Counted from the stretch's first letter, positions 38,114 to 58,320 are shown. The stretch is 64,000 nt of DNA from Synechococcus sp. WH 8101 (GCF_004209775.1 NZ_CP035914.1:1550001-1614000), one strand, 5' to 3'. The notes: generated by a model from the letters alone, not told the origin. Numbers and translations: made by a program.

Positions 38114-38510
38114 GCGCTCAGCATCTGACAATGGGGAGCGGGCCTATCCCCCGAACCCCTGGCGACAACAACGAGCAGACTACGCGCCCCGGAAGGATCA
38201 CTTGAGCGCGCATGAAGATGCCAAGCCAAGGTCAATTGGGGTTAAAACTCAACTAGACCATCGGCTTAACATCAATGAAGCAAGAGAATCCATCACAATA
38301 TTGCTTAATAGCAATATCTCACAACCGCAAACATCGCCGCAAACCAGAGGCACGTGTGCCAAATGCGAATCAATTCACAAGACTTACTCGCAAGGCAAGC
38401 AACAGAAACGACGCAGGCTGACGCACATCAGTCACTGAAACACTTTGGTGCAACAGCGCAAAGCGCAAGCCGAGAGGTAGCACCGTAGAGTGAAAGTTTG
38501 ACAAAAAGCA
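38114..38510. other. AT-richer intergenic region without a convincing gene
   Basis: About 400 bases with visibly lower GC than the neighbours. One 108-codon frame spans it but has no family-like sequence and no ribosome binding site, so I do not call it. It holds an inverted repeat at 38298-38317 and a shorter one, GGCACGTGTGCC, at 38349-38360. It separates the core genes from the accessory region and probably contains the promoter of the small regulator at 38511. Confidence 0.6.
38298..38317. repeat. Inverted repeat ATATTGCT-TAAT-AGCAATAT
   Basis: Perfect 8-base arms around a 4-base loop, about 200 bases upstream of the ribbon-helix-helix gene at 38511. No T-run follows on either strand, so it looks like an operator rather than a terminator. 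Confidence 0.7.
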
Positions 38511-38705
38511 ATGGCGCGCATCACCATTGCGCTAAGTGATCGCAACCATTTGGCGCTGAAGCTTTTATCACTACAAAAGGGCAAGCGGGTAATCAAGATT
38601 ATCCAAGAAGCAATTGAGCACCACCTAAAAAATGAAGGTGCCTACGATTTGGAAATCCAATCAAAAACTGATGACGAGAAAAGCCCAAAAGCGAACACCC
38701 TATGA
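38511..38705 (+). CDS. Small ribbon-helix-helix (CopG/Arc-type) protein
   Basis: 64 residues. MARITIALSDRNHLALKLLS followed by a basic turn (QKGKRVIKII) and helix QEAIEHHLKN has the strand-helix-helix pattern of dimeric RHH DNA-binding proteins. The C-terminal 20 residues are polar. The codons are AT-richer than those of the core genes, so it may be acquired. No toxin partner is adjacent, so it need not be an antitoxin. The DNA targets may be the inverted repeats on either side. Confidence 0.65.
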   Translation: MARITIALSDRNHLALKLLSLQKGKRVIKIIQEAIEHHLKNEGAYDLEIQSKTDDEKSPKANTL

Positions 38706-38780
38706 ACGCTTCTTAAGCGAAGCACAAAGCCTCAACATGCAATAGAGCTTGAAGTCCCAACAAAGTCCGGAAAAGTTAAA

Positions 38781-38823
38781 TATAGTCAAGGACAAGATTT
38801 CGACTGCTGCATGTACGCAGCAG
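38781..38823 (+). promoter_or_regulatory. Candidate -10 box and leader hairpin before the secreted-protein pair
   Basis: TATAGT at 38781-38786 resembles a -10 element. Downstream, CTGCTGC (38804-38810) can pair with GCAGCAG (38817-38823) around a six-base loop. Both lie in the 189-base gap between the RHH gene and the gene starting at 38895. No good -35 element was found. Confidence 0.35.
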
Positions 38824-38894
38824 CACTGCATAGACGCAGAATCGTTAGCGCCAGATCTCTAGGTTCCGCCTGACCATTGCCGCAGGTTGGCCGC

Positions 38895-39629
38895 ATGACA
38901 CGACCACAGATCAGCGCCCTGACACTGGCGCTCGCCCTGGGTCTCACTTCACCCTTAAGCGCCGAAGCCGGCGGATTCCGAACCGGCACTTACCAAACGA
39001 ACGACAGCTCAAGCAGCCATCGCAACATCACCTCCGGCATGGAGGAGATCCGCAGCGAACGCACTTACACCAACACCATCAACGGCAGCAGCCGGGTTGA
39101 CCACATTGGGCTGACCATGCAGGCGGATGGATTCGCGTTCAGCCGCCAGATCAACCAGGTGGATGCCAGCCTTGGCGCTCATGGTCTCAGTCGTGATCTC
39201 AGCGCAGCCGGCATGAGCCAATCGGATCTCCTGCAATGGAGTGCCACTACCAGTGCCTCGAGCGGCAACAGCGCCGACCATGACCTGAACCTGCAGATGC
39301 CCGGAATCGGCCTGGAGAGCTTGTTGATGGAGCAGGCCTCTCAAAGCCTCGGTACCGACGTCAGCAGCAGTCAATCGTTCTCCGGCGGAGCGATCAACCT
39401 GCAGGCCAACGATTCCGCCGCCAGTTCCGTTCTGGAACGCCTCCAGACGGGAGAGCAGATCGGCATGAACGGCAGCCTCGATCTGCGCATCGAACGTGGA
39501 GGCCAGAACGCTGTGTATGCCATGCAGGACTCCGGTTCCCAACGCCTCCATTCCATCGAGCGCTTCACCGGCAGCAGTGTTTATCAGTCGGAGCGAAGTG
39601 GACGTGGTGACCTGTTCGCCTTCGATTGA
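38895..39629 (+). CDS. Secreted protein of unknown function
   Basis: 244 residues with a clear signal peptide (MTRPQISALTLALALGLTSP, cleavage probably after AEA). The mature part is Ser/Asn/Gln/Gly-rich and lacks cysteine (for example SDLLQWSATTSASSGNSADH and SQSFSGGAINLQANDSA), with alternating polar patterns that suggest beta structure. I recognise no domain. The TTG 18 bases upstream is an unlikely start. The stop codon overlaps the next gene's ATG by one base (TGATG), so the two secreted proteins are probably made together. Confidence 0.72.
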   Translation: MTRPQISALTLALALGLTSPLSAEAGGFRTGTYQTNDSSSSHRNITSGMEEIRSERTYTNTINGSSRVDHIGLTMQADGFAFSRQINQVDASLGAHGLSRDLSAAGMSQSDLLQWSATTSASSGNSADHDLNLQMPGIGLESLLMEQASQSLGTDVSSSQSFSGGAINLQANDSAASSVLERLQTGEQIGMNGSLDLRIERGGQNAVYAMQDSGSQRLHSIERFTGSSVYQSERSGRGDLFAFD

Positions 39630-40285
39630 TGCGGCCCCTTTGTCCTGAGCGTGCAGCACACCGCAACGCCACCATCCTCACCGGGTGCCTGCTGGGCGGC
39701 TTGCTGGCCATTGCGCCAGTGGGCCTGGCCCAACAGGCATCCATGAGTGCCGATCAAAACACTAACAATCAGGCCATCGCTACGCCGAACAACAACCAGA
39801 CCAATCAATCGAGCAGTTTCAGCACAGGCGGCGATCTGATCCAGCAAAACATCAATCCCGCCATCGGCAAGCTTGGCGTCATGACCGTTGGCAAGGGGGG
39901 CGTCAGTTGCGAATCGGCCAGTGTGTATTTACAGCTCGGTGTTTACCCCTACGATAATCAATATTATGCTGTTTTTGATGACAATGTGCGTGACAAAGAC
40001 TGGATGCCGCAGGGGGCCTTTGGCGTCTCCATTCCCTTCGGCCCCCAGGTGTCTAGCTGCATTGACGCGATGCGGCATCAGACCCGCCAGGTGACCGTGG
40101 CCACCGAGGCGGGGATTCTGCGCCACTGCCTGTCTCTTAGATCGGCAGTGCAGCAGCTTGGCGAGGAGAGGCAACGGCTGGCCGATGCCTTTCCAACCCT
40201 TGCCAAGGACTGTCGGGAGATCTGGACAACCGCAGCTGATCCGCTGCCATGGAGGGATTCAACATCGGCTCCAGTTGGTCCTTGA
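39629..40285 (+). CDS. Secreted cysteine-containing protein of unknown function
   Basis: 218 residues. A signal peptide (hydrophobic core ILTGCLLGGLLAIAPVGL, cleavage near LAQQ) is followed by an Asn/Gln-rich linker (about 38-70, TNNQAIATPNNNQTNQSSS) and a domain with four cysteines (CESAS, SSCIDAM, RHCLSL, KDCREI). The last helical stretch (LRSAVQQLGEERQRLADAF) could be coiled coil. It is coupled to the preceding gene. Its last 149 bases overlap the 3' end of the convergent sigma-factor gene. No family recognised. Confidence 0.7.
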   Translation: MRPLCPERAAHRNATILTGCLLGGLLAIAPVGLAQQASMSADQNTNNQAIATPNNNQTNQSSSFSTGGDLIQQNINPAIGKLGVMTVGKGGVSCESASVYLQLGVYPYDNQYYAVFDDNVRDKDWMPQGAFGVSIPFGPQVSSCIDAMRHQTRQVTVATEAGILRHCLSLRSAVQQLGEERQRLADAFPTLAKDCREIWTTAADPLPWRDSTSAPVGP

Positions 40286-41093
40286 GTTTGCGCAGGGCTT
40301 GTTGTTCTAGGCGATGGGCCTGGTATCGGCTCAACCCCATCGCATCGGCGGCATGACTGAGGCTCACGGGCTCAGTCGAGCCAAACCGGAGACCCAGAAT
40401 CCTTTGTTCGCGCTGATTCAATCCCTGAATCACTTGATGGAGCCAGAGATAATCATCCTCGGGCTCCTGCAAGCGGCCATCACAAACGGTCTCCATCAGA
40501 GAACCACCTGACTCACTCGGATCCCAACGTTGATCCAATGACGACACACGGGCGCGTTGCAGAGCATGCAGGGCGAAGCGCAGGCGCTCAGGTTTTTCGT
40601 TGAGGTCCACGGCGATCGCATCCAACGAAACGCCTCGATCGGCATCCGAGCGAGCGAGCATCGCACTCACCTTGAAGGCGAGTTGTAACACATTCGAAGG
40701 AATATGAATGGCGCTGTGTTGCTCATGTAAAAAGCGATTGAGTGATTCCTTCACCCACCAGAACGCATAGGTGGAGAAGCGATAGCCGCGGGAAGGGTCA
40801 AAGCGTTGCGCAGCACGAATCAGGCCAAGATTTCCCGCCTGAATCGCATCCATCGGATCCACACCCAACTGCTCCAGGCGTGCGTGGGATCGTTTCACCA
40901 CCGCGACCACCAAGCGGAGATTGGCGGTTACCACCCGAGACAGGGCCCGCTGGCCACTACGGACACGACGGGCATCCGGTGCAGCATCTCCCCGCCAGCG
41001 CTGAATCAGAGTGCCGAGATGGATTTCTTCTGCCGTGGTGAGCAACGGTGAGCCAGCGATCTGACGCAGGTAATCCGTGAAGGCATCAGCCAT
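40137..41093 (-). CDS. Sigma-70 family RNA polymerase sigma factor (group 2-like, divergent)
   Basis: 318 residues with region 1.2 (DAFTDYLRQIAGSPLLT), region 2 (NLRLVVAVVKRSH, DAIQAGNLGLIRAAQRFDPS, RFSTYAFWWVKESLNRFL), region 3 and region 4 (REQRILGLRFGS, LSRYQAHRLEQQALRKLK). Regions 2.3/2.4 deviate from housekeeping SigA (which has ATWWIRQAITRAI), so promoter preference may differ. ATG 41093 fits region 1.2; the frame is open far upstream but not sigma-like. The last 40 residues are a tail overlapping the secreted-protein gene on the other strand. Confidence 0.9.
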   Translation of the reverse strand: MADAFTDYLRQIAGSPLLTTAEEIHLGTLIQRWRGDAAPDARRVRSGQRALSRVVTANLRLVVAVVKRSHARLEQLGVDPMDAIQAGNLGLIRAAQRFDPSRGYRFSTYAFWWVKESLNRFLHEQHSAIHIPSNVLQLAFKVSAMLARSDADRGVSLDAIAVDLNEKPERLRFALHALQRARVSSLDQRWDPSESGGSLMETVCDGRLQEPEDDYLWLHQVIQGLNQREQRILGLRFGSTEPVSLSHAADAMGLSRYQAHRLEQQALRKLKDQLEPMLNPSMAADQLRLSRSPDSPWQGLERHRPAVASPRQAAALPI

Positions 41094-41257
41094 AGGAGCC
41101 AGGACCTGAACGAGGACTGCAACAGGCTCTGAGCAGAACCAGGCGACGTCTATCGACTTTCGCGTCTCCGGAGCGGTGATGAAGCAGATCGCCATCAGCC
41201 AATGCCCCACCCTCCTGAAACGACAGAGGATCCAGACAGTGATCGGAACAGTTGGCC

Positions 41258-41782
41258 ATGAGCGACCACATCCTTGAGCGAAGCCTTGACAGCCGCAGCC
41301 CGGGCCACCGCATCCGCCAAGCGGGTATGGCACAGCGCGGTCGACTGGATCCCTTTGTGGACAAGGAGAAGCCCAGGGAGCACAGCCTTTGCCCCCACTG
41401 CGGCGCCACCGTGCATCAGGGGCGCTGGAGCTGGCACCAGGCTGTGGAGTCAGCACCTGAGCAGATCTGTCCAGCCTGTCGCAGGATCGCTGAACGCCTA
41501 CCGGCCGGTGAGCTGGAACTGAGCGGTCCCTTCCTGCAGGAGCACGAGGAGGAGGTGATGCATTTGCTGCTCCACAACGAACAGCGCTACCGATCTGAAC
41601 ATCCCCTCGAGCGGATGATGTGGATGGAGAGCAACGGCCTCAGCGGTGCCACCCGGATTGCCTTCAGCGGCCACCACATCACCCATGGACTGGCCAAGCG
41701 TCTGCAACGGGCCTATGGCGGTCGACTCAGTGGCGACGACGTCACCCCCGGCAGCAAGCTCCGCCTGCAATGGCACCGTTGA
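41258..41782 (+). CDS. BCAM0308 family protein (zinc-ribbon-like)
   Basis: 174 residues. Two CxxC pairs (LCPHCGATVHQGRW and ICPACRRIAERLPAGELEL) form a probable zinc ribbon, followed by a charged helical part (QEHEEEVMHLLLHNEQRYRS) and a small C-terminal domain ending TPGSKLRLQWHR. This matches my memory of the BCAM0308 family, found mostly in proteobacterial stress clusters; biochemical function unknown. It is divergent from the sigma gene and is followed by a DUF3175 gene two bases later. Confidence 0.72.
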   Translation: MSDHILERSLDSRSPGHRIRQAGMAQRGRLDPFVDKEKPREHSLCPHCGATVHQGRWSWHQAVESAPEQICPACRRIAERLPAGELELSGPFLQEHEEEVMHLLLHNEQRYRSEHPLERMMWMESNGLSGATRIAFSGHHITHGLAKRLQRAYGGRLSGDDVTPGSKLRLQWHR

Positions 41783-41784
41783 CA

Positions 41785-42126
41785 ATGACGTTGAACAAAC
41801 GATCGATCAACAGCGGGCACGACTGGGCGGCGGAAGTGAATCGTCGCCCACCGGTGCTGGATCTGGAGCCAGGCCTCTTCACCTGGGACCAGCCGGAGCA
41901 GATTGCAGCCTCTCTGTTGCAATCAGCGCGTCGAAGCCGGGCCCGCAAACGCAGCGTTTACGGCAGTGCCATGGCCATGCTGTGTTTGTACATCAACCGG
42001 GCCGGGCGCAAGCTTCCCGCCCGGCGTCGTTCGATCCTCACGCAAGCAAAGACGTGCTTGAGGGAGCTGGCTGGGGTTCACCAGAACGGTGGGGAGCCAG
42101 GATTGCCAACACATCAGCGTCGCTGA
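41785..42126 (+). CDS. DUF3175 domain-containing protein
   Basis: 113 residues with the DUF3175 pattern: LDLEPGLFTWDQPEQIAASL, RKRSVYGSAMAMLCLYINRA and KTCLRELAG. Short, basic, soluble; function unknown. It starts two bases after the BCAM0308-family stop codon, so the two are likely one transcript. Its last 89 bases overlap the convergent phosphoribosyltransferase gene. Confidence 0.75.
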   Translation: MTLNKRSINSGHDWAAEVNRRPPVLDLEPGLFTWDQPEQIAASLLQSARRSRARKRSVYGSAMAMLCLYINRAGRKLPARRRSILTQAKTCLRELAGVHQNGGEPGLPTHQRR

Positions 42127-42733
42127 GCTGATCAAACCGCTCGTACCAGAGCCCTACGGCGGTGAGGTGATCCACCAACAGCAACACTTCCAAACGGTCG
42201 ACAACATGACGCATCGTCTCCACCAGTGCGCGGTCCATCACCGGCACAGCCAGCGTCAGCATCGAGGGACGAGCCAGCCTTAGCGATTGCAAGGCCGCCA
42301 AGGTGGTCATGCCCGTGGCGACTCCATCATCGACAACGATGAGGTGATGATTGAAGAGCTCACTGACGTCGGGGTCGTCAAACTCCTGATGGCGGCGCTC
42401 CCATTCCTGTTGGGCCAGCCTCAGCCAGGCTTCCGCTTGGGGAAGCATCGACCAGGCCGGATCACCAGGTTCGTGGCGCCAGAGCACCACACCCTCACCA
42501 GCCACTGCGCCCAGGGCCAGCTCCGGGCGGGCTGGTTCCACGATCTTGCGCACCGACCAGGTGTGCAGGGGGAGTTGCAGCTTGGAGGCCATCGCTGCCG
42601 CCACCGGAACACCGCCTCGGGGCAGGGCGATCAGGCTGGTCATCCCATCGCCATCGGCACAATCCTGCAGGCGTTCGGCGAGAGCGAGGCCGGCCTGATG
42701 CCGATCGGTCCAGACCGGTGAATGGTGAAGCAT
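42038..42733 (-). CDS. Phosphoribosyltransferase-family protein
   Basis: 231 residues from ATG 42733 (a GTG at 42763 would add ten). The PRPP-binding loop LIVVDDGVATGMTTLAA and the N-terminal LIALPRGGVPVAAAMA identify a type I phosphoribosyltransferase fold. Proteins of this subgroup (SVRKIVEPARPELALGAV-like, HQLSD near the end) are common in bacterial stress clusters, and their substrate is not known. The 3' end overlaps DUF3175 by 89 bases. Confidence 0.82.
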   Translation of the reverse strand: MLHHSPVWTDRHQAGLALAERLQDCADGDGMTSLIALPRGGVPVAAAMASKLQLPLHTWSVRKIVEPARPELALGAVAGEGVVLWRHEPGDPAWSMLPQAEAWLRLAQQEWERRHQEFDDPDVSELFNHHLIVVDDGVATGMTTLAALQSLRLARPSMLTLAVPVMDRALVETMRHVVDRLEVLLLVDHLTAVGLWYERFDQLSDADVLAILAPHRSGEPQPAPSSTSLLA

Positions 42734-42813
42734 GGAGCGACAGCGCGAAGGGCTGTCTGTCACCTAGGCAGGGCGCCTGGAGCCGGGGCGGTGATGCTCA
42801 GCAATGCAGCGGA

Positions 42814-43989
42814 TCAGGTGGGTACCAGCAACCGCAACTTGCGCAATAACAGTCCCATCACCGTTCCTCGGCGGATGATCAGATCGGCGTCCACATCCAT
42901 ACCGGCACGGAGAGCACAGCGCCGCTGACCCTGCCTGAGCTGATCGGCGCTCGGTGTGATCGTCACGGCGTATTCACCATCCACAGCATCAGCAGCGATG
43001 GCCTGGATGCGCCCGTCCAGCACCCCGAAATCGGTGTAAGGGCAGGAGCTCACCCGCAGTGCCGCCGCCTGTCCTGCGCGCAGGGGCGCCACATCCCGAG
43101 CCGGAAGTTGCACCCGCACGGCCAGGGGCTGGGATGCGGGGGCCAGGGTGGCGACCACATCGCCCGGTTGGAGCACTTGGCCCGGGTAGCGAAGTTTTGT
43201 CTCCACCACCGTGCCATCCACGGGAGCAAGCAACCGCATCTGTTCCGTGGCCCTGGCGTTCTCGCGCAGGCGACCCTCGATGGCTGCCAACTGCCGCTCA
43301 AGCTCGGCCTGGGAACTGAGTGCCGTACTGAGAGACTGGCGCAATCGGGCCTGTTCGGCCTCAAGACGGGCGCGCTGCTCTCCCACACCGAGGCGTGCCT
43401 GCTCCAACCTGCTGCTAGCAACGGCGACCCCGGCCTCTTTTTCCTCCAGCAACAACTGGGGAATCGCCCCTTCCGCCGCCAGGGAGCGCAACCGCTGCAG
43501 TTCGCGATCCTGAAAGCGTGATCCGGCGAGGGCCTGGGCCACGCCACCACGTGCTGAGGCGATCTGGGTCTGGATCAGACGGGCGATCGATTGCGTTTGC
43601 GCCTGCAGATCAGTGCCTTGCCGTCTGGCCTGATGGAGCTGCTCCTGCAACTGGGTGCGCTCCCGCAGCAACTGCCGACGTTGCGACAGCAAGGGTTCCC
43701 GATCGAATTCCGCTAGCAACTGGCCCGCCTTCACCTTTTGATTGGGCGACACCAGCACGCGGCTGAGGCGACCGCCGCCCAACGACTGAACCGGCGAATT
43801 TTCTCCCTGGGGTCGCACCTGGCCACTGGCCCGTGCCAATTCATCCAAAGGCCAGACGCAGGCCATGGCGAGGAGAGCGACACCGGCGGCAGCGGTGCGC
43901 CAACCGAGCTGGTGTGCCCAGGCCCCGGGCGGCGGCAGAAACTCATCCGGGGTGGCGGGGGGGAGCGCGTGATGGTGTGGAACTGTCAT
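42814..43989 (-). CDS. HlyD-family periplasmic adaptor (membrane fusion protein)
   Basis: 391 residues: a short cytoplasmic N-terminus, one transmembrane helix (about 33-50, TAAAGVALLAMACVWPLDEL), a lipoyl/biotinyl-like half, a long coiled coil of Gln/Arg/Leu-rich heptads (about 95-265), the second half starting RLLAPVDGTVVETKLRYPGQ, and a beta-barrel C-terminus. It links an inner-membrane ABC transporter to an outer-membrane channel in type I secretion. Its ATG overlaps the stop codon of the upstream ABC gene (ATGA), so it is its partner. No TolC gene is adjacent. Confidence 0.93.
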   Translation of the reverse strand: MTVPHHHALPPATPDEFLPPPGAWAHQLGWRTAAAGVALLAMACVWPLDELARASGQVRPQGENSPVQSLGGGRLSRVLVSPNQKVKAGQLLAEFDREPLLSQRRQLLRERTQLQEQLHQARRQGTDLQAQTQSIARLIQTQIASARGGVAQALAGSRFQDRELQRLRSLAAEGAIPQLLLEEKEAGVAVASSRLEQARLGVGEQRARLEAEQARLRQSLSTALSSQAELERQLAAIEGRLRENARATEQMRLLAPVDGTVVETKLRYPGQVLQPGDVVATLAPASQPLAVRVQLPARDVAPLRAGQAAALRVSSCPYTDFGVLDGRIQAIAADAVDGEYAVTITPSADQLRQGQRRCALRAGMDVDADLIIRRGTVMGLLLRKLRLLVPT

Positions 43990-46232
43990 CAGGCCACCTT
44001 CAGGAAGGGTGCAACAGGGGCGTGCTCCTGGAGCAAGCGTGGTGTGTTTTCCGCCAACACCTGGCCCTGCTCGAGATAAATAATCCAATCGGCACGCATG
44101 ATCACCGAGGGGCGGTGACTGATCAGCACGGTGGTGTGTCCCTGACGCTGCTCGAGCAGGCGCTCCATCAGCCGGCTCTCCAGCACGGGGTCGAGTGCAG
44201 AGGTGGCCTCATCAAGAATCAACAGCGGTGGATCACTGATCAAGGCCCGCGCAATCGCCAGCCGCTGACGTTGACCGCCGGAGAGGTTGGCGCCGAACTC
44301 ACCAAGAATCGTGCGATAGCCATCCGGCAGTTGCCGGATGAAATCATCGGCGAGGGAAAGCTGACAGGCCGCAACGATCTGCTCAAAGCTCACTCCCGGA
44401 TGGGCGAAGGTGAAGTTCTCCGCGATGGAGCGATTGAAGATGACCGATTCCTGCGGCACCAGCACCACCTGGGAACGCAACACATCAAGCGACAGGTCCC
44501 GACTATTGAACGGCCCGAAGTGGATCGTGCCCTGATCAGGTGGATAGATGCCGGCCAGGATCTTGCTGAGGGTGCTTTTGCCACAGCCGGATTCCCCTAC
44601 CAGAGCCGTGGTGACACCTCCTGGAATCAGGAGGTTGAGGTCTTGAAGCAACGCGCGCCGACCAGGATGGTTGTAGGTGATCGCTTCGCAGCGGATTTCA
44701 GCATTCCTGGGGATCGTCACCGAGGCACCGGTTCCTGGACCCATCGGTTCCGGTTTGCGTTCCAACACATCACCCATCCGGCGAATCACCACATCCGCCA
44801 GCAACAATTCCTGGGTGACACCACTCAAGGATGCGAGCAAAGCCAGCACGTTGGCACCAAAGCCGTTGAACGCCAGCAACTGGCCGATCGAGAGCTCGCG
44901 GGCAATCACAAACGAACTGCCGTACCAGAGCAAGGCCACGGTGACCACGCTGCCGAGGGCTCCGGTGAGGCTGGATTCAGCCAACTTCAGCCGCAGCTCG
45001 CGCCAGGCGAGGTGTGACATCCGACCGAAATTGCTTTGATATTCCTGCCAGGCCTGGGCGAAGGCCTCACTCGTCTTCAACACACTGGCGCCACGAAAGA
45101 TCTCCACCAGGAAGCCTTGATTGTCAGCAGAGCGCACCAACAGCTCCCGCGAAGCCGCCTTCAAGGCAGGTAGAAACACCAAACTGCAGGTGATCACCAA
45201 CGTGTAACCGAGTAAGGCGGCCAGCGTCAGTGAGGCTGAATAGGTCCACATCAGAACCAGCGAAATCAGCGCAATGCAGAACTGACTGGGAAGGCCAAGC
45301 ACCACCGAGCCAATCAGGTTGTTCACATGCTCGATGTCGCCGATGCGACTCACCGCCTCGCCGCTGCGATGGGTTTCGAAATAACGCAGAGGCAAGAGGA
45401 GCAGCTGTCGGCCGTAATGCATCACCATCTGCAACTGCAGCTTCTGACCGAAGTAACCGACCAGATGGCCCTGCAACTGTCCGATCAGCGAACGGAAGGC
45501 AAAAAGCAGCATCAGGCCGAGGCAGAGGCTCACGAGCATGCGCTGATCACCGCGCACTAGCACGTCGTCGGTGAGTAGCTGCATCAACAGGGGCAAACCC
45601 AGCGACATCATGCCCACCACCAGATTGAGCAAGAGCGCCTGAACCAGAAGTTTGCGGAACGGCAGCACATAGCGCAGCAGCACTGCAAAGGCATGGCTGG
45701 GTTCTTCGGGATGCTCAGGACGGCGGGCCGGATCGGGCTCGAGCAGCAGAACGACGCCGTCATTCCAATGCTGCAGGAATCGCTCCCGACTGAGGCGGCG
45801 CAAACCGACAGCTGGATCGGCAATCAGCACCTCATCGCCGATCAGGTGATGTAACACCACCCAGTGCTGGCCATCCCAGTGACAGATCAGTGGCAGGGGA
45901 ACCTCCCTGAGCGCGTCAAGAAATCGCTCCGGCGCTCGGGCAGCCCGCGCTGCGAACCCGAGTTGCTCGGCACCGCGGCGCAGGCCGAGCAAGGTGGTGC
46001 CATGGCTGGTGGTGCCCACCGCGTCGCGAATCATCCCCTGGGGAAGCTGAATGCCATGGCTTTTGGCCACCGTGGCCAAGCAGGCGGCCCCACAATCCTC
46101 CTCATCGAACTGACGCACGCAGGGATAAGCAGGCGCAAGATGTTGTCCCAGGCGCCGCAATGGCGACAGCAAGACGGCAAGGGAAATGGGCACAGAACCA
46201 GCCTTTACGCAGAACATCGGAACAACAGCCAT
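43989..46232 (-). CDS. Peptidase-containing ABC exporter (C39 domain), double-glycine peptide processing and export
   Basis: 747 residues in three parts: a C39 cysteine protease (Cys47 in DEEDCGAACLATV, His124 in HWVVLHH, Asp139 in ADPAVG), a six-helix transmembrane domain (about 160-460), and an ATPase (GESGCGKST, LSGGQRQRLAIARAL, LLILDEATSALD). Such exporters cut leaders after Gly-Gly and export the peptide. Two Gly-Gly leader peptides lie immediately upstream. The first ATG (46232) is inside a strong hairpin; ATG 46217 is also possible. In S. elongatus a similar exporter, PteB, secretes the EbfG proteins. Confidence 0.93.
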   Translation of the reverse strand: MAVVPMFCVKAGSVPISLAVLLSPLRRLGQHLAPAYPCVRQFDEEDCGAACLATVAKSHGIQLPQGMIRDAVGTTSHGTTLLGLRRGAEQLGFAARAARAPERFLDALREVPLPLICHWDGQHWVVLHHLIGDEVLIADPAVGLRRLSRERFLQHWNDGVVLLLEPDPARRPEHPEEPSHAFAVLLRYVLPFRKLLVQALLLNLVVGMMSLGLPLLMQLLTDDVLVRGDQRMLVSLCLGLMLLFAFRSLIGQLQGHLVGYFGQKLQLQMVMHYGRQLLLLPLRYFETHRSGEAVSRIGDIEHVNNLIGSVVLGLPSQFCIALISLVLMWTYSASLTLAALLGYTLVITCSLVFLPALKAASRELLVRSADNQGFLVEIFRGASVLKTSEAFAQAWQEYQSNFGRMSHLAWRELRLKLAESSLTGALGSVVTVALLWYGSSFVIARELSIGQLLAFNGFGANVLALLASLSGVTQELLLADVVIRRMGDVLERKPEPMGPGTGASVTIPRNAEIRCEAITYNHPGRRALLQDLNLLIPGGVTTALVGESGCGKSTLSKILAGIYPPDQGTIHFGPFNSRDLSLDVLRSQVVLVPQESVIFNRSIAENFTFAHPGVSFEQIVAACQLSLADDFIRQLPDGYRTILGEFGANLSGGQRQRLAIARALISDPPLLILDEATSALDPVLESRLMERLLEQRQGHTTVLISHRPSVIMRADWIIYLEQGQVLAENTPRLLQEHAPVAPFLKVA

Positions 46233-46250
46233 GGGCCTGAGCCCATGGCT
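46229..46250 (-). promoter_or_regulatory. Perfect hairpin over the exporter start codon
   Basis: GCCATGGGC and GCCCATGGC form nine-base arms with a four-base loop. It lies in the 26-base gap between the Gly-Gly peptide gene and the exporter, and its arm contains the exporter's first ATG (46230-46232). No T-run follows, so it is more likely a processing or translation-control element than a strong terminator. Confidence 0.65.
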
Positions 46251-46258
46251 GCAAGGGA

Positions 46259-46516
46259 CTAACTACGAATGCGCAGCGACAGCATGTTGACCATCGAAGA
46301 CACATTCGATTCAGCCCGTCCGCCCAGCACTCCAACAGCCGTGGGTACGGCAAGGTTGAGCTGGTTGGTCTCCACCACAGCCACATCAGTGCTGATCATG
46401 GGAGCCACCACTGGTGCCACCTGAGGTGACACCCGGGTGACCAATCGGGGCGACACCTGGATGGAGAAGAAGCCACCTTGAAGGGCTTCACATTGAAGGT
46501 CTGAGAGAGCTTCCAT
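46259..46516 (-). CDS. Double-glycine leader peptide (secreted peptide precursor)
   Basis: 85 residues. The leader MEALSDLQCEALQGG ends in Gly-Gly with hydrophobic and acidic residues spaced as in class II bacteriocin and EbfG-type leaders; C39 proteases cleave after it, leaving a 70-residue product. The product is Val/Ser/Pro-rich (VSPQVAPVVAPMISTDVAVV) and has no cysteine. It lies 26 bases upstream of the C39 exporter. No peptide-modifying enzyme is nearby, so an unmodified peptide is likely. I recognise no mature-peptide family. Confidence 0.82.
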   Translation of the reverse strand: MEALSDLQCEALQGGFFSIQVSPRLVTRVSPQVAPVVAPMISTDVAVVETNQLNLAVPTAVGVLGGRAESNVSSMVNMLSLRIRS

Positions 46517-46527
46517 AGGAATCAAGA

Positions 46528-46549
46528 AGAAAGGCGGCCGAAGGCCGCC
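46528..46549 (-). terminator. Hairpin with weak T tail between the two Gly-Gly peptide genes
   Basis: GGCGGCC pairs with GGCCGCC around TTC, followed on the minus strand by TTTCTTCTT. It could partly terminate transcription after the upstream peptide gene, giving more of that mRNA than of the downstream exporter genes. Confidence 0.6.
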
Positions 46550-46562
46550 CGAACAACGAGTC

Positions 46563-46799
46563 TCAGGCGCGCTGAGCGATCGAAATCTCAGCCGCGTTGA
46601 ATTGGTCCCGCACACTCACAGCGCCGAGGCCCAGAGCGCCGGCGGTGTACATGCCGTTGTCCTGCACAGTGTTGGTGCGGACGGATTGACGGGCATAGGA
46701 CTTGCTGCTGTAGCTCGGGCGGGACCAGCGACCACGACGGGAATATCCACCCTGGAGGGTCTCAGCGTGGAGGTCAGAAATCAGTTCGAAAGCAGGCAT
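46563..46799 (-). CDS. Double-glycine leader peptide, basic Ser/Tyr/Arg-rich product
   Basis: 78 residues from ATG 46799. Leader MPAFELISDLHAETLQGG has the canonical EL-x-x-L-x-x-E-x-L-x-GG pattern. The predicted 60-residue product begins with a strongly basic, aromatic stretch (YSRRGRWSRPSYSSKSYARQ) and ends in a neutral part (AGALGLGAVSVRDQFNAAEI). No cysteine. It shares leader logic but not core sequence with the 46259-46516 peptide, and is first in the probable transcript peptide-peptide-exporter-adaptor. Confidence 0.82.
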   Translation of the reverse strand: MPAFELISDLHAETLQGGYSRRGRWSRPSYSSKSYARQSVRTNTVQDNGMYTAGALGLGAVSVRDQFNAAEISIAQRA

Positions 46800-47029
46800 T
46801 GGGTTGATCCAGAGAAGGAACAAAAGAGAGGCGCGCGCCCCAGACAGTCATAAGCAGGAGGCGATTCGTCATTTGGGAATTTCACACAAGTGCAGCTGAG
46901 GCGCAGCGCCATCAATCCGCCCATTGGATCAGCACGGATCGGCATCCAGAGTGCTGCAGTGAAGCTGCACCTTGATGCGAGCAACACGCATAAGATTCAG
47001 GCGTCGAGCATTCTGCTTCAACACACACC

Positions 47030-47320
47030 ATGAACAACCGCATTCGCGTGCTGCAAAGACAACCCAAGCGAATTTCAATCACCCTCAGTCACAATGTTCA
47101 TGACGCACTCCTCACACGCTCAGAAGACGAAGGACGCTCCGTATCGAATCTCTGCGCCTTTCTGCTTGAAGAGGCCCTTCGCGACCCTTTGCGCAACGGA
47201 CAAGCCAATATGGCCTATGGCCAGACCAACGCCCTGAACACTGGCCCCGGCAACGGCTTCAATCCAAGCCCCGGGATGGCAGGGAAACATCCGCCGATCA
47301 ACAAACCCCGTTACTTTTGA
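47030..47320 (+). CDS. Ribbon-helix-helix protein, GRSxSNLxAFLLE family
   Basis: 96 residues. KRISITLSHNVHDALLTRSE then DEGRSVSNLCAFLLEEAL forms an RHH DNA-binding fold; the C-terminal 40 residues are Gly/Asn/Pro-rich (NALNTGPGNGFNPSPGMAGK) and probably disordered. It is divergent from the Gly-Gly peptide genes across 230 bases and may regulate them. Two further genes in the window (51744, 57925) share the GRSxSNLAA motif. Confidence 0.75.
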   Translation: MNNRIRVLQRQPKRISITLSHNVHDALLTRSEDEGRSVSNLCAFLLEEALRDPLRNGQANMAYGQTNALNTGPGNGFNPSPGMAGKHPPINKPRYF

Positions 47321-47327
47321 AATGGCA

Positions 47328-47358
47328 AAGCCCCGGCCTGACCAACCGGGGCTTCTTT
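47328..47358. terminator. Bidirectional terminator between RHH gene and cfa-like gene
   Basis: AAGCCCCGG and CCGGGGCTT form nine-base arms around a nine-base loop, with TCTTT on the right and A residues on the left. It lies between the convergent stop codons at 47320 and 47379. Confidence 0.82.
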
Positions 47359-47378
47359 GTGTCGCCATCTGCCTTGGC

Positions 47379-48482
47379 TCAGAGGGCGGGACGCAGGAGC
47401 AACTGCCAGAGCTGGCCATGGCCAGAGCGGAAGTAACCCGCACAACCGAGAAGGTAGTAACGCCACATCCGGTAAAACTCATCGCTGAGCGTCCCTTGCA
47501 ACAGGGGCCAGTGGGCTGAGAACTTCTCCCACCAAGCCAACAGGGTGCGTTCATAGTGGAGTCCATAGTTTTCCCAGCTTTGCAGCTGAAAGACCCCCTC
47601 AACGGCTTGCGCTAACTGGGACGGGGCTGGCAGGCGACCACCCGGGAAGATGTAGCGCTCAATCCATGGATCGGTTTGGGCGGTGGTCACAAAGTGACCG
47701 ATTGTCTGCAACAGGAAGAGGCCATCCGGCAGCAAGCAATCCCGCAAGATCCGATGATACGTGCCTTGATTGACGGGACCCACATGCTCAAACATTCCCA
47801 CAGATACGATGCGATCAAAGCGCGGTTGATTCAGTTGCGGCAGGGAGCGATAATCAGCCATCAGCACCTCAATCGGCCAATGGGTGTGGTGATCACGGAT
47901 ATAGGCATACTGTCGCGCTGAAATCGTGATCCCATAGCCTTGCACCCCATAGTGCTCGCAGGCATAGGCCAACAAGCCGCCCCAGCCGCAGCCCACATCA
48001 AGGAGGCGATGGCCAGGCTGTAACTCCAGTTTGCGGCAGATCAGATCCAGCTTGCGTTCCTGGGCCTGATCCAGGGTGTCGCCGTCGTTCCAGATCGCAC
48101 AGCTGTAAATCCGCCTGGCATCGAGCATGGCCGCGTACACCCTCGGATCGATGTCGTAATGCACCCGCCCTACGCGAAAGGACCGATGCAGGGTCTGGGG
48201 ATTCAGCATCCACTCCCGTAGCCGCTGCCAGGCTTCTCGAAGACCCTGCAAAGGATTAGCCTCAAGCTGATAGCGAGCACGCAAGAGCCGTGCAATCAAC
48301 TCCGGCAGATCATCACAATCCCAATCACCACGAACATATCCCTCCCCAAGAGCCAGCCCTCCCCTCTGAAGCAGGTCAGAAAAAAGACCCCGATCATGCA
48401 CATCGAGGTCATAGGGCCTTTGGCCATCAAAGCGAACATCTGCCATCGAGGCGATGGTCTCAATGAGAGCTGGTGCGGTCAT
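47379..48482 (-). CDS. cfa: Cyclopropane-fatty-acyl-phospholipid synthase family methyltransferase
   Basis: Transfers a methylene group from SAM to unsaturated lipid chains, stiffening membranes under stress. 367 residues: N-terminal lipid-binding domain (GLALGEGYVRGDWDCDDL), HYDIDPRVYAAMLDARRIYS, SAM site HRLLDVGCGWGGLLAYACEH, and VSVGMFEHVGPVNQ. ATG 48482. It is downstream of hsp20 on the same strand after 100 bases without a terminator, so the two may be co-expressed. Other SAM-dependent lipid methyltransferases of the family are possible. Confidence 0.87.
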   Translation of the reverse strand: MTAPALIETIASMADVRFDGQRPYDLDVHDRGLFSDLLQRGGLALGEGYVRGDWDCDDLPELIARLLRARYQLEANPLQGLREAWQRLREWMLNPQTLHRSFRVGRVHYDIDPRVYAAMLDARRIYSCAIWNDGDTLDQAQERKLDLICRKLELQPGHRLLDVGCGWGGLLAYACEHYGVQGYGITISARQYAYIRDHHTHWPIEVLMADYRSLPQLNQPRFDRIVSVGMFEHVGPVNQGTYHRILRDCLLPDGLFLLQTIGHFVTTAQTDPWIERYIFPGGRLPAPSQLAQAVEGVFQLQSWENYGLHYERTLLAWWEKFSAHWPLLQGTLSDEFYRMWRYYLLGCAGYFRSGHGQLWQLLLRPAL

Positions 48483-48582
48483 GCGTGGCTGAACATTGCC
48501 TGACAAGGCAAACACGCATCACCAATCAAACCATCACCTGCATCCATTCTGCGGCAGTTGCTCAGCACGGGCACACCAGCTA

Positions 48583-49017
48583 TCAAGACACAGGAATCTT
48601 GATCGCCTTTGTTTCGACCGCGCCGCCCTTGCGGGGGATGGAAATCGTGAGCTCACCATTTTCGCAGTGGGCCTTCACTGCCTTGAGATCCGCGTCTTCA
48701 GGCAAGGTAAAACTGCGACTGAAGCTGCCATAGGAGCGCTCGACCCGGTGAAAACGAGGATTCTTCTCCTCTTTTTCCCGTTTCCGTTCACCTTGCACGG
48801 TGAGTCGGTCACCCGACACCATCACCGACACATCATCACGGCGCATGCCCGGTAGATCGGCTTTGAATTGATAGGAGCCATTGGCTTCATAGATGTCCAC
48901 ACGAGGGCCCCATTCATTCCAGGGCATCGTGGATGTGAATGGCATCGTCGGCATGGCCAGGGCTCGATCCATCATCGCTTCAAGATCATTGAGAGGCTCC
49001 CACTTGATCAAGCTCAT
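48583..49017 (-). CDS. hspA: Small heat shock protein, Hsp20/alpha-crystallin family
   Basis: ATP-independent holdase that keeps unfolding proteins soluble. 144 residues: variable N-terminus (MSLIKWEPLNDLEAMMDRAL), then the alpha-crystallin domain (about 40-138) with YQFKADLPGMRRDDVSVMVS and the conserved GSFSRSFTLPEDAD, and a short C-terminal tail KAIKIPVS carrying an I-x-I/V-type motif for oligomer assembly. The ribosome binding site is inside a hairpin (49018-49038). Confidence 0.95.
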   Translation of the reverse strand: MSLIKWEPLNDLEAMMDRALAMPTMPFTSTMPWNEWGPRVDIYEANGSYQFKADLPGMRRDDVSVMVSGDRLTVQGERKREKEEKNPRFHRVERSYGSFSRSFTLPEDADLKAVKAHCENGELTISIPRKGGAVETKAIKIPVS

Positions 49018-49038
49018 GTCATCACCTCAAAGGTGTGA
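49018..49038 (-). promoter_or_regulatory. Candidate RNA thermometer at the hsp20 ribosome binding site
   Basis: On the minus-strand mRNA, TCA+CACCT (49038-49031) pairs with AGGTG-A-TGA (49027-49019) around a TTG loop, with one bulged A. The Shine-Dalgarno GAGGTG lies in the 3' arm, five bases before the ATG, so it would be hidden at low temperature. The Synechocystis hsp17 leader is a known example of such a short hairpin. Confidence 0.55.
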
Positions 49039-49084
49039 AGAGGACACCTTCAGGATATGAATCCCCGTGAAGGCTGAGGATGAA

Positions 49085-49106
49085 GGGGCTGATCTGCATC
49101 AGCCCC
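49085..49106 (-). terminator. Hairpin after the SpoIIAA-like gene, weak terminator
   Basis: GGGGCTGAT and ATCAGCCCC form nine-base arms around a four-base loop, 12 bases after the stop codon at 49118. The following TTCATCC is a poor T tract, so termination may be partial. Confidence 0.5.
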
Positions 49107-49117
49107 ACTGCATGGAC

Positions 49118-49843
49118 TCAATCCTGGCAGATCCACTCCTGCGCCTCCAGCATGCGCCCACTGGGAAACACTTCGACCCTGGGCTCACCAAAGCCGCGAA
49201 CAAGCCTGTGCGCCAACTGCTGCCAGAGCTCACCTGTGACCACCGCAATGCGGGAAGGTTGTTGCCTGTAGGTGTGAATCAGTCGCAGGTGCTCCCGTAG
49301 CGCTGTCAATGCAAGCCAACCATCAAACTGACGCAGATCCACAAGTACACGGGGGCGCTCACCGGCGGTAAACAGCCTTGACAGGTCTGTCTCGATGCGT
49401 GCAAAGGTCTGCGAATCCAGTAAACCAAGCAGCGTGATCGTGATGACATCACCTGCCCGTTCGAGATGGATGGTGCCAAGGGATTCACTCAACCAACGAC
49501 GTGCCTCATCTTGTTGCTCCAGACGAAACATGCGCACAGGGCATGGAAGCAGCAGGGCCATCACCGTCGTGGCGTGACGGATCAGGGGCTGATCCGTCAC
49601 GACGGCGATCCGCTCGAAACCCTCCCAGTGGCGTAGTCCCAGCACCGCGTCATCGAGCGCTGCTGCCAAGCCAAAATGCTGAAAGCTTGATTCAAACACC
49701 AGCAGAGCCTTGATGCGCTCAACGTCCAGCAGCCTTGATTCGATCGTTGGCACCACACAGCGCTGTAATTCTGCATCACTGACCTGACCACGAAATGCGA
49801 AACCCACAGTGGCTGAGGGCAAGGATTCGATCACTTCAATCAT
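49118..49843 (-). CDS. Tandem SpoIIAA-like (STAS-fold) protein
   Basis: 241 residues in two similar halves of about 115 residues. Each has the SpoIIAA-like pattern of a beta strand, a hydrophobic LLVFES or VLVDLR strand, a helix, and a VVT strand (RIAVVTDQPLIRHATTVMAL and RIAVVTGELWQQLAHRLV). The second half starts near SLGTIHLERAGDVITITLLG. ATG 49843 is chosen since the upstream extension is not domain-like. Function unknown; single-domain relatives occur in stress clusters. Divergent from ybhB. Confidence 0.78.
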   Translation of the reverse strand: MIEVIESLPSATVGFAFRGQVSDAELQRCVVPTIESRLLDVERIKALLVFESSFQHFGLAAALDDAVLGLRHWEGFERIAVVTDQPLIRHATTVMALLLPCPVRMFRLEQQDEARRWLSESLGTIHLERAGDVITITLLGLLDSQTFARIETDLSRLFTAGERPRVLVDLRQFDGWLALTALREHLRLIHTYRQQPSRIAVVTGELWQQLAHRLVRGFGEPRVEVFPSGRMLEAQEWICQD

Positions 49844-50009
49844 TGGATGGGTGAGAACATCGGCAGAACCGTATCGCCTCGTTATCTCGGCCCTGAACGA
49901 TGATCCAAAGCCGCTGCATCCATGCAGCATGCCGCAGGCTGATCCACAGCAACAGTCGCGGTTCTCCTTGGTCACCCGCAAAGTTGAGGCCGAACTCTGT
50001 AGACAGCGA

Positions 50010-50510
50010 ATGGCCAGCGGTAACGGCGTGTTTCACCTCGATTCACCGGCCTTTGGCGATGGCGACCTGATCCCCTTGATTCATACCGCTGAGAGCCTCA
50101 ACCTCTCGCCGCCATTGCGTTGGGCTGGAGCACCGGCCGGCACCCGGAGCTTTGCACTGATTGTGGATGATCCCGATGCAGCGGGCGGTCACTGGGTGCA
50201 CTGGGTTCTCTTCAATCTGCCGCCTGAGCAACGCGCCCTTTCCGCAGCTCAGCCGCAATCGCTGCAGTTGGCCAATGGTGCTCGCCAGGGTTGTTGCTGG
50301 GGCATCAACCATTTTCAGCGCACCGGCTACCAGGGTCCACTGCCCCCTGAGGGTGAACTGCATCGCTATGTGTTTCAGCTGTATGCCCTCGATGAGTCGC
50401 TGCTGCTACCGGCAGGAAGCACAGCGAGTGATCTGCGGGATGCGATGCAGAGCCATGTGCTGGCTGATGCCTCCCTGATCGGACTGTATGGCCGGCATCA
50501 GGGTGAATGA
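50010..50510 (+). CDS. YbhB/YbcL family (PEBP / Raf kinase inhibitor-like) protein
   Basis: 166 residues from ATG 50010, the usual length. The PEBP ligand-binding pocket is recognisable: LSPPLRWAGAPAGTRSFALI, VDDPDAAGGHWVHWVLFNLP and GYQGPLPPEGELHRYVFQLY. No signal peptide in this version; the frame is open to an ATG at 49929, which would add 27 residues. The small-molecule ligand is unknown. The next gene starts one base after its stop. Confidence 0.9.
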   Translation: MASGNGVFHLDSPAFGDGDLIPLIHTAESLNLSPPLRWAGAPAGTRSFALIVDDPDAAGGHWVHWVLFNLPPEQRALSAAQPQSLQLANGARQGCCWGINHFQRTGYQGPLPPEGELHRYVFQLYALDESLLLPAGSTASDLRDAMQSHVLADASLIGLYGRHQGE

Positions 50511-50511
50511 G

Positions 50512-50982
50512 ATGGATCTGTTCTCTGTCGCTCTGTTTTCGGCCTTTGTCGTGCTGCCCCCCGTAGGCCAGGCGCTACGGATCGCCGCACTCTGGATTGC
50601 CTGGCTGATCGTCATGCTGTTCCACGTGGAGCTGGGGTTGATGCCCTTGTTTCATGGTCGCTCCGTGCAGATCGAAACGGATGTGCCCGTCGCCAGGCTG
50701 CCGCGTCTGTTCATGGCGATGTTGCTGTATCTGATGGTGCCGGTGTTGGCGATGCTCTTGGCCTTCCACGCCGCGGCAGATCCGCAAAGCTGGAGTGCGG
50801 CATCCAGCTGGCGGGGCGCCCAGTGGTGGTTGAGCCTGCTCTACACGCTCACCAACCTGATTCACCTCACCGCCGACATCCGCATCCCCGATGCGCGCCG
50901 TGATCAGATCGTGCTGATGAGCTTTCTGACCCTGATCGGTCTGATGCTCAATGTGGAGACCTGGCTGTGGTGGCGCGGATGA
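50512..50982 (+). CDS. Integral membrane protein, unknown
   Basis: 156 residues with four to five hydrophobic helices (LFSVALFSAFVVLPPVG, LWIAWLIVMLFHVELGLMPL, MAMLLYLMVPVLAMLLAF, and IVLMSFLTLIGLMLNVETWL). No family recognised. It is tightly packed between ybhB (one-base gap) and the ZIP transporter (ATGA overlap), so it is probably part of one operon and might act with the transporter. Confidence 0.7.
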   Translation: MDLFSVALFSAFVVLPPVGQALRIAALWIAWLIVMLFHVELGLMPLFHGRSVQIETDVPVARLPRLFMAMLLYLMVPVLAMLLAFHAAADPQSWSAASSWRGAQWWLSLLYTLTNLIHLTADIRIPDARRDQIVLMSFLTLIGLMLNVETWLWWRG

Positions 50983-51731
50983 GCGCCGATCTGACCAGCG
51001 CCATCACAATCGCCATAGGTGCCGTGCTGATGAGCCTGATCGCCATGGTGGGAGCGATCACCCTGGTGCTGCCGGCCCGTCGACTGGAAGCTCTGCTGCT
51101 GCCACTGGTGGCTCTTGCGGCGGGATCACTGCTCGGAGGTGCACTGTTCCACATGCTTCCCGAGGGATTCTCCCAACTGCTGCCCCGCCGTGGAGCGCTC
51201 TGGATCGGCGCTGGTTTCAGCACCTTCCTGGTGCTGGAGCAATCGCTGCATTGGCATCACAGCCATCGCGCGCAGACGCATCGATCAACCGTTGCCGTGA
51301 AACCGATGGCTCTGTTGATCCTGCTCGGCGATGGTCTGCACAACTTCATCGGTGGCCTGGGCATCACCGGCACTTATCTGATCAATCCGGCGGCGGGGGT
51401 CGCCGCCTGGTTTGCAGCTGTGCTGCACGAAATCCCCCAGGAGCTGGGCGATTTCGGCGTGCTGGTCCACAGCGGCTGGCCACCGACTCGCGCCCTGTTC
51501 TGGAATCTGATCTCGGCACTCACCTTCCCGCTCGGTGCCCTGCTGGCCTGGAGTTTTCGCGCCAGCCTGCCCCTGGCCCCCCTGGTGCTCTTTGCCGCCG
51601 GAAACTTTCTCTACATCGCCGCCTCGGATCTGGTTCCAGAGATCAAGGCCACACAGCGCACCCTGCCGGCCCTGGCCAATGTGGGTTGGTTTCTGCTCGG
51701 CCTGCTGATGCTGCAGCGACTGGCTATTTAA
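50979..51731 (+). CDS. ZIP-family metal transporter
   Basis: 250 residues, eight predicted helices. The metal-site motifs are GDGLHNFIGGLGI in helix 4 and HEIPQELGDFGVLVHSG in helix 5, which identify ZIP permeases for zinc, iron or related divalent cations. A short His-rich loop (HWHHSHRAQTH) lies before helix 4. The start overlaps the preceding stop codon (ATGA); a GTG 12 bases upstream is less likely. Confidence 0.9.
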   Translation: MSADLTSAITIAIGAVLMSLIAMVGAITLVLPARRLEALLLPLVALAAGSLLGGALFHMLPEGFSQLLPRRGALWIGAGFSTFLVLEQSLHWHHSHRAQTHRSTVAVKPMALLILLGDGLHNFIGGLGITGTYLINPAAGVAAWFAAVLHEIPQELGDFGVLVHSGWPPTRALFWNLISALTFPLGALLAWSFRASLPLAPLVLFAAGNFLYIAASDLVPEIKATQRTLPALANVGWFLLGLLMLQRLAI

Positions 51732-51743
51732 TCGTCACGCGCC

Positions 51744-51920
51744 TCACTTCTCGCGCGCCAGGGATTCCTCAATCAGATAGGCGGCCAGGTTGCTGATCGA
51801 CCGCCCTTCGGAACTGCTGCGCAGCACCAATCGCTCATACACTGCATGGGCAAGCGTCACCGTGAGGCGTTGTGGTGACTTGAATCGAGCCGGTTGGTTG
51901 GGGTTTCCAGATGGCGCCAT
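51744..51920 (-). CDS. Small ribbon-helix-helix protein, GRSxSNLAA family
   Basis: 58 residues from ATG 51920 with GAGG upstream. QRLTVTLAHAVYERLVLRSS followed by EGRSISNLAAYLIEESLA forms a complete RHH fold. It is a close relative of the 47030 and 57925 products. It lies between the ZIP gene and the P-type ATPase, on the opposite strand to both, so its promoter faces the ATPase gene's leader. Confidence 0.75.
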   Translation of the reverse strand: MAPSGNPNQPARFKSPQRLTVTLAHAVYERLVLRSSSEGRSISNLAAYLIEESLAREK

Positions 51921-51996
51921 ACCTCAAGAACAACGCAACGTTTCAGCGGCACAACACCCCGCGAAACGGCCTGGTGAAGTCGTGCCTTCATGACTG

Positions 51997-52035
51997 ATGC
52001 AAGCGCACCTTAGTGCTCTTGCAAATGCAAGCGCA
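51997..52035. repeat. Direct repeat of ATGCAAGCGCA upstream of the P-type ATPase
   Basis: Two exact 11-base copies at 51997-52007 and 52025-52035, 28 bases apart, in the gap between the divergent RHH gene (start 51920) and the ATPase (start 52149). They could be paired binding sites. Confidence 0.6.
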
Positions 52036-52148
52036 GCCTTCCGTTGTGGGAATGCGCTGATGTCAGGACAACGAAAATTGAAACGTTTCTGCAGCGCCCG
52101 CAGCAATCCAAACGGCATCAGCCTTGATCTGCCTTCCGGCGGACCCTC

Positions 52149-54938: not shown

Positions 54939-54995
54939 CCCACGCATCGACAAGCCGGTCCGCACTCCAATCTGCCCTCAATCGCTGTGGGCTCC

Positions 54996-56567: not shown

Positions 56568-56642
56568 CGAGGCACTCCTGCGTCAGGTGACGTGATCGAA
56601 ACCAATGGCACCGATCATCACAAGAGTCTGCACCATTCACCC

Positions 56643-57841: not shown

Positions 57842-57877
57842 GATCGACCTCTCTCGCCCTTAACCCCAGGCTATGAA

Positions 57878-57902: not shown

Positions 57903-57924
57903 GAGAGCTTCATGACGCCGAGCT

Positions 57925-58304: not shown

Positions 58305-58320
58305 TCGTCAGAAAGAAGTA

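What the first reader, a model, noticed from the sequence alone, without database searches (positions are those of the whole stretch)
42814..46799. Complete double-glycine peptide secretion cassette with two unrelated mature peptides
Two small genes (46563-46799, 46259-46516) encode leaders ending in Gly-Gly with canonical leader spacing, followed on the same strand by a C39-peptidase ABC exporter with an intact Cys-His-Asp triad and a coupled HlyD adaptor. The two mature parts differ completely (one basic Ser/Tyr/Arg-rich, one Val/Pro-rich) and neither has cysteine; no modifying enzyme is near. Known parallels are class II bacteriocins and the S. elongatus EbfG/PteB biofilm-signalling system. 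Which role applies here is inference.
Basis: partly seen in the sequence, partly recalled or inferred. Interest (0 to 1): 0.82.

Follow-up and report, generated by a model that had tools for sequence, protein, structure and literature searches.

The report
PteB-type exporter with QxN-module secreted peptides
A marine cyanobacterium carries a small gene set that cuts and exports two little proteins; their relatives across picocyanobacteria share a conserved two-part Gln-x-Asn module and the same leader code as a known biofilm-matrix system, which makes an extracellular-matrix role testable.

Summary
In Synechococcus sp. WH 8101 (genome length matches exactly), two Gly-Gly-leader genes precede a C39 exporter (C47-H123-D139) and a HlyD adaptor, inside published island ISL10.

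Three points change the interpretation.
(1) The exporter is the reciprocal best hit of S. elongatus PteB (51%); EbfG1, 2 and 4 were recognised there by published tryptic peptides. EbfG leaders share the D(-10), A(-7), E/Q(-6) code, unlike the canonical E(-8) I/L(-7) consensus.
(2) The mature peptides are not orphans. They score above all 3000 of their own shuffles against two subfamilies found beside PteB-type exporters in other picocyanobacterial genera. 34 of 48 non-redundant mature peptides carry two Q-x-N motifs (shuffled mean 1.1). No such family is in Pfam.
(3) Terminator-like hairpins separate precursor genes and exporter, suggesting substrate made in excess. A ribbon-helix-helix gene, a sigma factor and stress genes recur nearby.

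Most likely: a PteB/EbfG-like system exporting unmodified small matrix or surface proteins. Secretion is well supported; the matrix role is inference (about 50%). EbfG homology of the mature parts was tested and not found. A class II bacteriocin is less likely: no immunity gene.

The parts
46563..46799 (-). Precursor P1: leader MPAFELISDLHAETLQGG, mature YSRRGRWSRPSYSSKS...; basic N-terminal tail, then QDN ... QFN module (type B)
46259..46516 (-). Precursor P2: leader MEALSDLQCEALQGG, mature FFSIQVSPRLVTRVSPQ...; V/P-rich with SP repeats, then QLN...AVGVLGG (type A)
43989..46232 (-). PteB-type C39 peptidase-ABC exporter, triad C47-H123-D139; true start may lie inside 46232-46130
42814..43989 (-). 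HlyD-type periplasmic adaptor, ATG overlapping the exporter stop (TGATG)
46532..46550 (-). Terminator-like hairpin between P1 and P2 (8 pairs, then TTCTTCTT); also at the same place in G019
46225..46252 (-). Strong 12-pair hairpin between P2 and the exporter (-25 kcal/mol, z -4.9); same place, different sequence in G019 (z -5.9)
46815..46852 (-). Conserved block upstream of P1 (TATGACTGTsTGGGGCGCGCGCCTCTyTTTGTTCC) with palindrome GGCGCGCGCC at 46830-46839; candidate promoter/operator
   Evidence: function inferred
47030..47320 (+). Divergent ribbon-helix-helix (RHH_5) gene, candidate regulator; recurs near PteB-type exporters in other genera
38074..63263 (.). Island segment holding the cassette; absent from near relative G003, largely present in G019; within published ISL10 of WH 8101

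Best explanation
The cassette is a dedicated secretion unit for two small, unmodified, cysteine-free proteins. The PteB-type exporter recognises a variant double-glycine leader (L/I-12, D-10, small residue at -7, E/Q-6, I/L/V-4), cuts after Gly-Gly, and with the HlyD adaptor and (inferred) a TolC-like outer-membrane protein releases 60- and 70-residue peptides. Hairpins after P1 and after P2 probably attenuate transcription so that substrate is made in excess of exporter. The mature peptides consist of a basic or Ser/Pro-rich tail plus a Q-x-N module that (inferred) stacks or assembles outside the cell as matrix or cell-surface material, as EbfG1-4 do in S. elongatus, under control of a linked ribbon-helix-helix protein and/or an island sigma factor (inferred). 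Shown by sequence: genes, triad, leader code, family membership, hairpins, linkage. Inferred: cleavage, export, assembly, biofilm role, regulation.
For: Reciprocal best hit with PteB: 831 bits, next G000 hit 293. EbfG1/2/4 tryptic peptides published in PMC4997328 are found verbatim beside that PteB, with a HlyD gene downstream. Leader code shared by 54 picocyanobacterial and 4 S. elongatus leaders, with positions -5 to -11 left free in the search. P1 and P2 beat all 3000 of their own shuffles against type B and type A models built without them. Two Q-x-N motifs in 34 of 48 peptides against a shuffled mean of 1.1, maximum 5. Hairpins with z below -2 after 38 of 70 precursor genes. EbfG1-3 form amyloid and EbfG4 lies in the matrix and on the cell surface (PMC9981879). 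No other precursor of these types in the WH 8101 genome. No immunity-type gene in the cassette.
Against: Mature P1/P2 show no detectable homology to EbfG, and the EbfG amyloid hotspot A-Phi-N-I is absent from P1 and P2. P2 keeps only the first of the two Q-x-N motifs. PteB is no closer to the picocyanobacterial exporter clade than are exporters of filamentous cyanobacteria. AlphaFold without an alignment gave poor models (pLDDT 50 and 57), so the beta module is unproven. Mature parts diverge fast between G000 and G019 (28% and 40% identity against 88% for the exporter), which would also suit a bacteriocin.
Confidence: 0.5

Rival explanations
1. A two-peptide class II (class IIb-like) bacteriocin: both unmodified peptides act together on membranes of competing picocyanobacteria.
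For: Double-glycine leaders, C39 exporter, Cys-free cationic peptides (+6, +2), rapidly diverging mature parts, a GxxxG (GVLGG) in P2, island location; such cyanobacterial clusters were first catalogued as bacteriocins (PMC3140520).
Against: No immunity gene in the cassette or between its genes. Leader code differs from the bacteriocin consensus at -7 and -8. Relatives have 1-4 peptides rather than pairs. The only tested member of the exporter family serves biofilm formation (PMC4997328).
Confidence: 0.2
2. Secreted proteins with another surface function (adhesion to particles, protection from phage or grazers, stress protection) that do not form fibres.
For: Stress-gene neighbours (HSP20, sigma factor, CMAS) recur. 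Exporters of the same family elsewhere carry folded small cargo such as beta/gamma-crystallin domains.
Against: The Q-x-N module with mostly 17-25 residue spacing resembles stacking repeats rather than a globular domain; not decisive.
Confidence: 0.2
3. Peptide pheromones for cell-cell signalling.
For: Double-glycine leaders and a C39 exporter are also used by ComC-type signals (general knowledge); regulators (RHH, sigma factor, response regulator) lie in the island.
Against: Mature parts of 60-70 residues, no receptor kinase beside the cassette, several co-encoded variants per locus, hairpins that suggest bulk production.
Confidence: 0.07

Closest known systems
EbfG1-4 / PteB of Synechococcus elongatus PCC 7942 (PMC4997328, PMC9981879)
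   Same: Reciprocal-best-hit exporter; order small GG genes, exporter, HlyD; leader code D(-10) A(-7) E/Q(-6); Cys-free 60-77 aa mature proteins; hairpins among the small genes
   Different: Mature parts not detectably homologous; two precursors rather than four; no A-Phi-N-I hotspot in P1/P2; different organism and island setting with RHH and sigma factor
Cyanobacterial 'bacteriocin' clusters with the short-type C39 transporter (groups III-V of Wang et al. 2011, PMC3140520)
   Same: Short-type C39 exporter plus HlyD with small GG precursors; architecture resembles group III
   Different: Not a NHLP or N11P precursor; no LanM or other modifying enzyme in the cassette; leader has a small residue at -7
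Curli (CsgA) curlin repeats (PMC10192328)
   Same: Conserved Gln/Asn positions recurring at about 18-22 residues in a secreted protein
   Different: No Pfam match; Q-x-N instead of Q-x-G-x-x-N; at most two units in nearly all peptides; different secretion machinery. Resemblance of spacing only
Class IIb bacteriocins
   Same: Two unmodified cationic peptides, GG leaders, C39 exporter
   Different: No immunity gene, non-canonical leader, conserved Q-x-N module

Membership tests
EbfG/PteB biofilm system | Exporter is the PteB counterpart | tested here: met
   Reciprocal best hits at 51%, 831 bits against 293 for the next; tree does not resolve a special sister relation
EbfG/PteB biofilm system | Small GG genes directly upstream of the exporter, HlyD downstream | tested here: met
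EbfG/PteB biofilm system | Leader of the EbfG type | tested here: met
EbfG/PteB biofilm system | Mature part homologous to EbfG1-4 | tested here: not met
   HMM with shuffles and hhalign find no similarity
EbfG/PteB biofilm system | Requirement for biofilm, amyloid formation, repression by a type IV pilus-dependent signal | not testable with these tools
   needs mutants and biochemistry
Class II bacteriocin | Immunity gene in the operon | tested here: not met
   Gaps of 46 bp (P1-P2) and 26 bp (P2-exporter ORF) have room for hairpins only; HlyD is followed by a phosphoribosyltransferase
Class II bacteriocin | Canonical double-glycine leader M(R/K)ELX3E(I/L)X2(I/V)XG(G/A) | tested here: not met
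   E at -6, small residue at -7 (consensus quoted in PMC3140520)
Class II bacteriocin | Antimicrobial activity | not testable with these tools
   needs an inhibition assay
NHLP / N11P (prochlorosin) RiPP | NHLP or Nif11-type leader and modifying enzyme | tested here: not met
   No Pfam or NCBIfam match for P1 or P2; no LanM in the cassette
Curlin amyloid | Curlin repeat | tested here: not met
   No Pfam match even at E up to 10, within HMMER's filters

The most novel reading that the evidence does not exclude
An undescribed family of small secreted proteins with a two-strand Q-x-N stacking module forms functional-amyloid matrix fibres in picocyanobacteria. They are exported by PteB-type transporters through a shared variant leader and carried with an RHH regulator, a sigma factor and stress genes on genomic islands, so that biofilm or aggregation ability moves between strains as a unit.
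Probability: 0.3. Interest if true: 0.78.

Novelty: new variant of a known kind. Interest (0 to 1): 0.58.

Why it matters
The 2016 EbfG paper reported no homology of the mature EbfG proteins to proteins of other cyanobacteria. Here exporter, gene order and leader code tie that system to cassettes in about 9% of sampled picocyanobacterial genomes, with a conserved peptide module that no profile library searched here holds. If the peptides are matrix proteins, this gives a genetic handle on how free-living marine Synechococcus aggregates and sinks, and a leader rule for predicting substrates of PteB-type exporters.

Tried and rejected
Direct homology of P1/P2 to EbfG mature parts: not found. Curlin match: none. 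Plasmid copies of P1: only a weak E. coli match at E 0.7, taken as chance. AlphaFold on P1 and P2 without an alignment: pLDDT 57 and 50, so no fold search was run. Relatives' sequences from whole genomes were not sent to the folding tool because its stated rule does not list them. Further substrates elsewhere in the genome: none of types A or B. The palindrome GGCGCGCGCC alone is not beyond chance in the window (expected 0.7); only its conserved place in G000 and G019 is notable. dN/dS of the mature parts: alignments gappy and synonymous sites saturated, so no claim of positive selection is made. A simple aggregation scale, recalled from memory, did not separate P1/P2 from EbfG and carries no weight. 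The promoter scan found no sigma-70-type promoter for the operon.

Full report
What is there. The window lies at G000:C1:1550001-1614000. G000 has 2,630,292 bases, exactly the length published for Synechococcus sp. WH 8101 (PMC7033273), so I take the organism to be that strain. Precursor P1 (46563-46799) has an 18-residue leader and a 60-residue mature part. P2 (46259-46516) has 15 and 70. The exporter has C39, transmembrane and ATPase domains; aligned with PCAT1 (4RY2) its triad reads C47, H123, D139. HlyD starts at an ATG that overlaps the exporter stop. A leader matrix trained only on other genera ranks the two leaders first and second among 655 window ORFs (30.3 and 28.3 bits; next 10.1), so the leaders are not chance.

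Where it sits. Compared with near relative G003, window positions of about 38,074-63,263 are missing there while the flanks lie within about 0.6 kb of each other; the more distant G019 has the cassette and most of the segment. The left edge matches the published island ISL10 (starts at 1588101). Within the genus of 31 species held, only G000 and G019 have this exporter (88% identical to each other). In the family, 35 of 400 genomes have it at 49% or more; a 36th listed match is a different, longer transporter at 31%.

Kinship with PteB. Outside the family, the best-scoring matches are two genomes of one genus. One of them encodes, verbatim, the EbfG1, EbfG2 and EbfG4 peptides seen by mass spectrometry in S. 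elongatus (PMC4997328). Its exporter, PteB, and the window's are reciprocal best hits (831 bits; next hit in G000 293). The tree puts the window in a supported clade of 20 picocyanobacterial exporters (96/100) but does not resolve PteB as its special sister; exporters of filamentous cyanobacteria are about as close. So 'PteB-type exporter' is justified, 'the same system by descent' is not proven.

Leader code. With positions -5 to -11 left free in the search pattern, 49 of 54 unique picocyanobacterial leaders and 4 of 4 S. elongatus-type leaders found have a small residue at -7; D or E stands at -10 in 50 of 54 and 4 of 4; E, D or Q at -6 in 49 of 54 and 4 of 4. The consensus quoted for double-glycine leaders has E at -8 and I or L at -7 (PMC3140520). 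Leaders beside exporters of other cyanobacteria also have a small residue at -7 (25 of 26) but mostly lack the D(-10)/E(-6) pair. This code unites the window's peptides with EbfG.

Mature peptides. Neither peptide matches Pfam or NCBIfam. Next to exporters of the picocyanobacterial clade lie one to four GG genes, falling mostly into types A, B and C. Models of types A and B built without the genus score P2 (type A, 17.3 bits) and P1 (type B, 11.8 bits) above all 3000 of their own shuffles (best shuffles 13.0 and 9.6). P1 carries T42, Q46, N48, G57, G59, Q66 and N68, which are nearly invariant in type B; P1 itself was in that alignment. Across 48 non-redundant mature peptides, 34 have two or more Q-x-N motifs (shuffles: mean 1.1, maximum 5 in 1000), 17-25 residues apart in 31 of the 35 neighbouring pairs counted, with 18 commonest. 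P2 keeps only the first motif. The peptides are related, so these counts are not independent events. EbfG mature parts match none of the types. Type C peptides of relatives contain A(F/I)NI next to Q-x-N, like the EbfG amyloid hotspot (PMC9981879), but P1 and P2 do not.

Expression design. A terminator-like hairpin lies between P1 and P2 and a stronger one between P2 and the exporter; G019 has hairpins at both places, the second with a different sequence. Hairpins with z below -2 follow 38 of 70 precursor genes, including some in S. elongatus (single-base shuffles). I infer attenuation that yields more substrate than exporter. Between G000 and G019 a block from about 50 bp upstream of P1 through its leader is well conserved and similarity ends at the Gly-Gly codons: P1 leader 94% identical in protein, mature part 28%. 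The P2 leader does not show this (53%).

Neighbours. A divergent RHH gene (47030-47320), 91% identical in G019, also has relatives near exporters in seven other loci. A sigma factor, HSP20, CMAS and a phosphoribosyltransferase recur near exporters in several genera; none of the island genes searched matched in 180 kb of other DNA from three genomes of the genus. That control is small and from one genus, so I call the linkage likely rather than measured.

How it works, and how sure. Export of two unmodified small proteins through a PteB-type exporter is well supported by sequence (about 0.9). That they serve as matrix or surface material is inference from the PteB link, the Q-x-N module, several co-encoded variants, hairpins and absence of an immunity gene (about 0.5). 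A bacteriocin (0.2) and another surface function (0.2) remain open.

Other cargo. Exporters of this family in filamentous cyanobacteria sit beside GG genes with beta/gamma-crystallin domains and Tyr-rich or other repetitive cargo, which suggests that the exporter family handles structural small proteins more generally.

Noticed in passing
window 38074-63263: About 25 kb present in WH 8101 and largely in G019 but absent from near relative G003, with lower G+C than the backbone; part of published island ISL10.
   Followed up: partly
window 47030-47320: Divergent ribbon-helix-helix gene whose close orthologue in the genus occurs only in the two cassette-bearing genomes, with relatives near PteB-type exporters in other genera.
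   Followed up: partly
window 40137-41456: Sigma-70-family factor in the island; relatives lie near the exporter in seven other loci.
   Followed up: partly
window 54987-56567: B12-binding radical SAM protein (DUF4070) in the same island, 8 kb from the cassette on the other strand; no sign that it acts on the peptides.
   Followed up: no
L066 6431-8575 and 11649-11777: A second short C39 exporter in the WH 8101 genome and, about 3 kb away, a Cys-containing precursor with leader MKTAQAELSEEELEGVAGG, of the N11P/prochlorosin kind by its leader.
   Followed up: no
L107, L109, L110, L112: Exporters of the same family in other cyanobacteria sit beside GG precursors whose mature parts match or resemble beta/gamma-crystallin domains.
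   Followed up: partly
L087 5548-6260, L092: GG precursors with Arg/Ser-repeat mature parts beside degenerate or intact PteB-type exporters; function unknown.
   Followed up: no
L123, L126, L127: GG precursors with Tyr/Arg-rich mature parts (HYYGGYCGYRRFYGYRPVYY...) beside exporters of the same family.
   Followed up: no
L052, L054, L057 (exporter): Exporter copies with in-frame stops, so the system appears to decay in some genomes.
   Followed up: no
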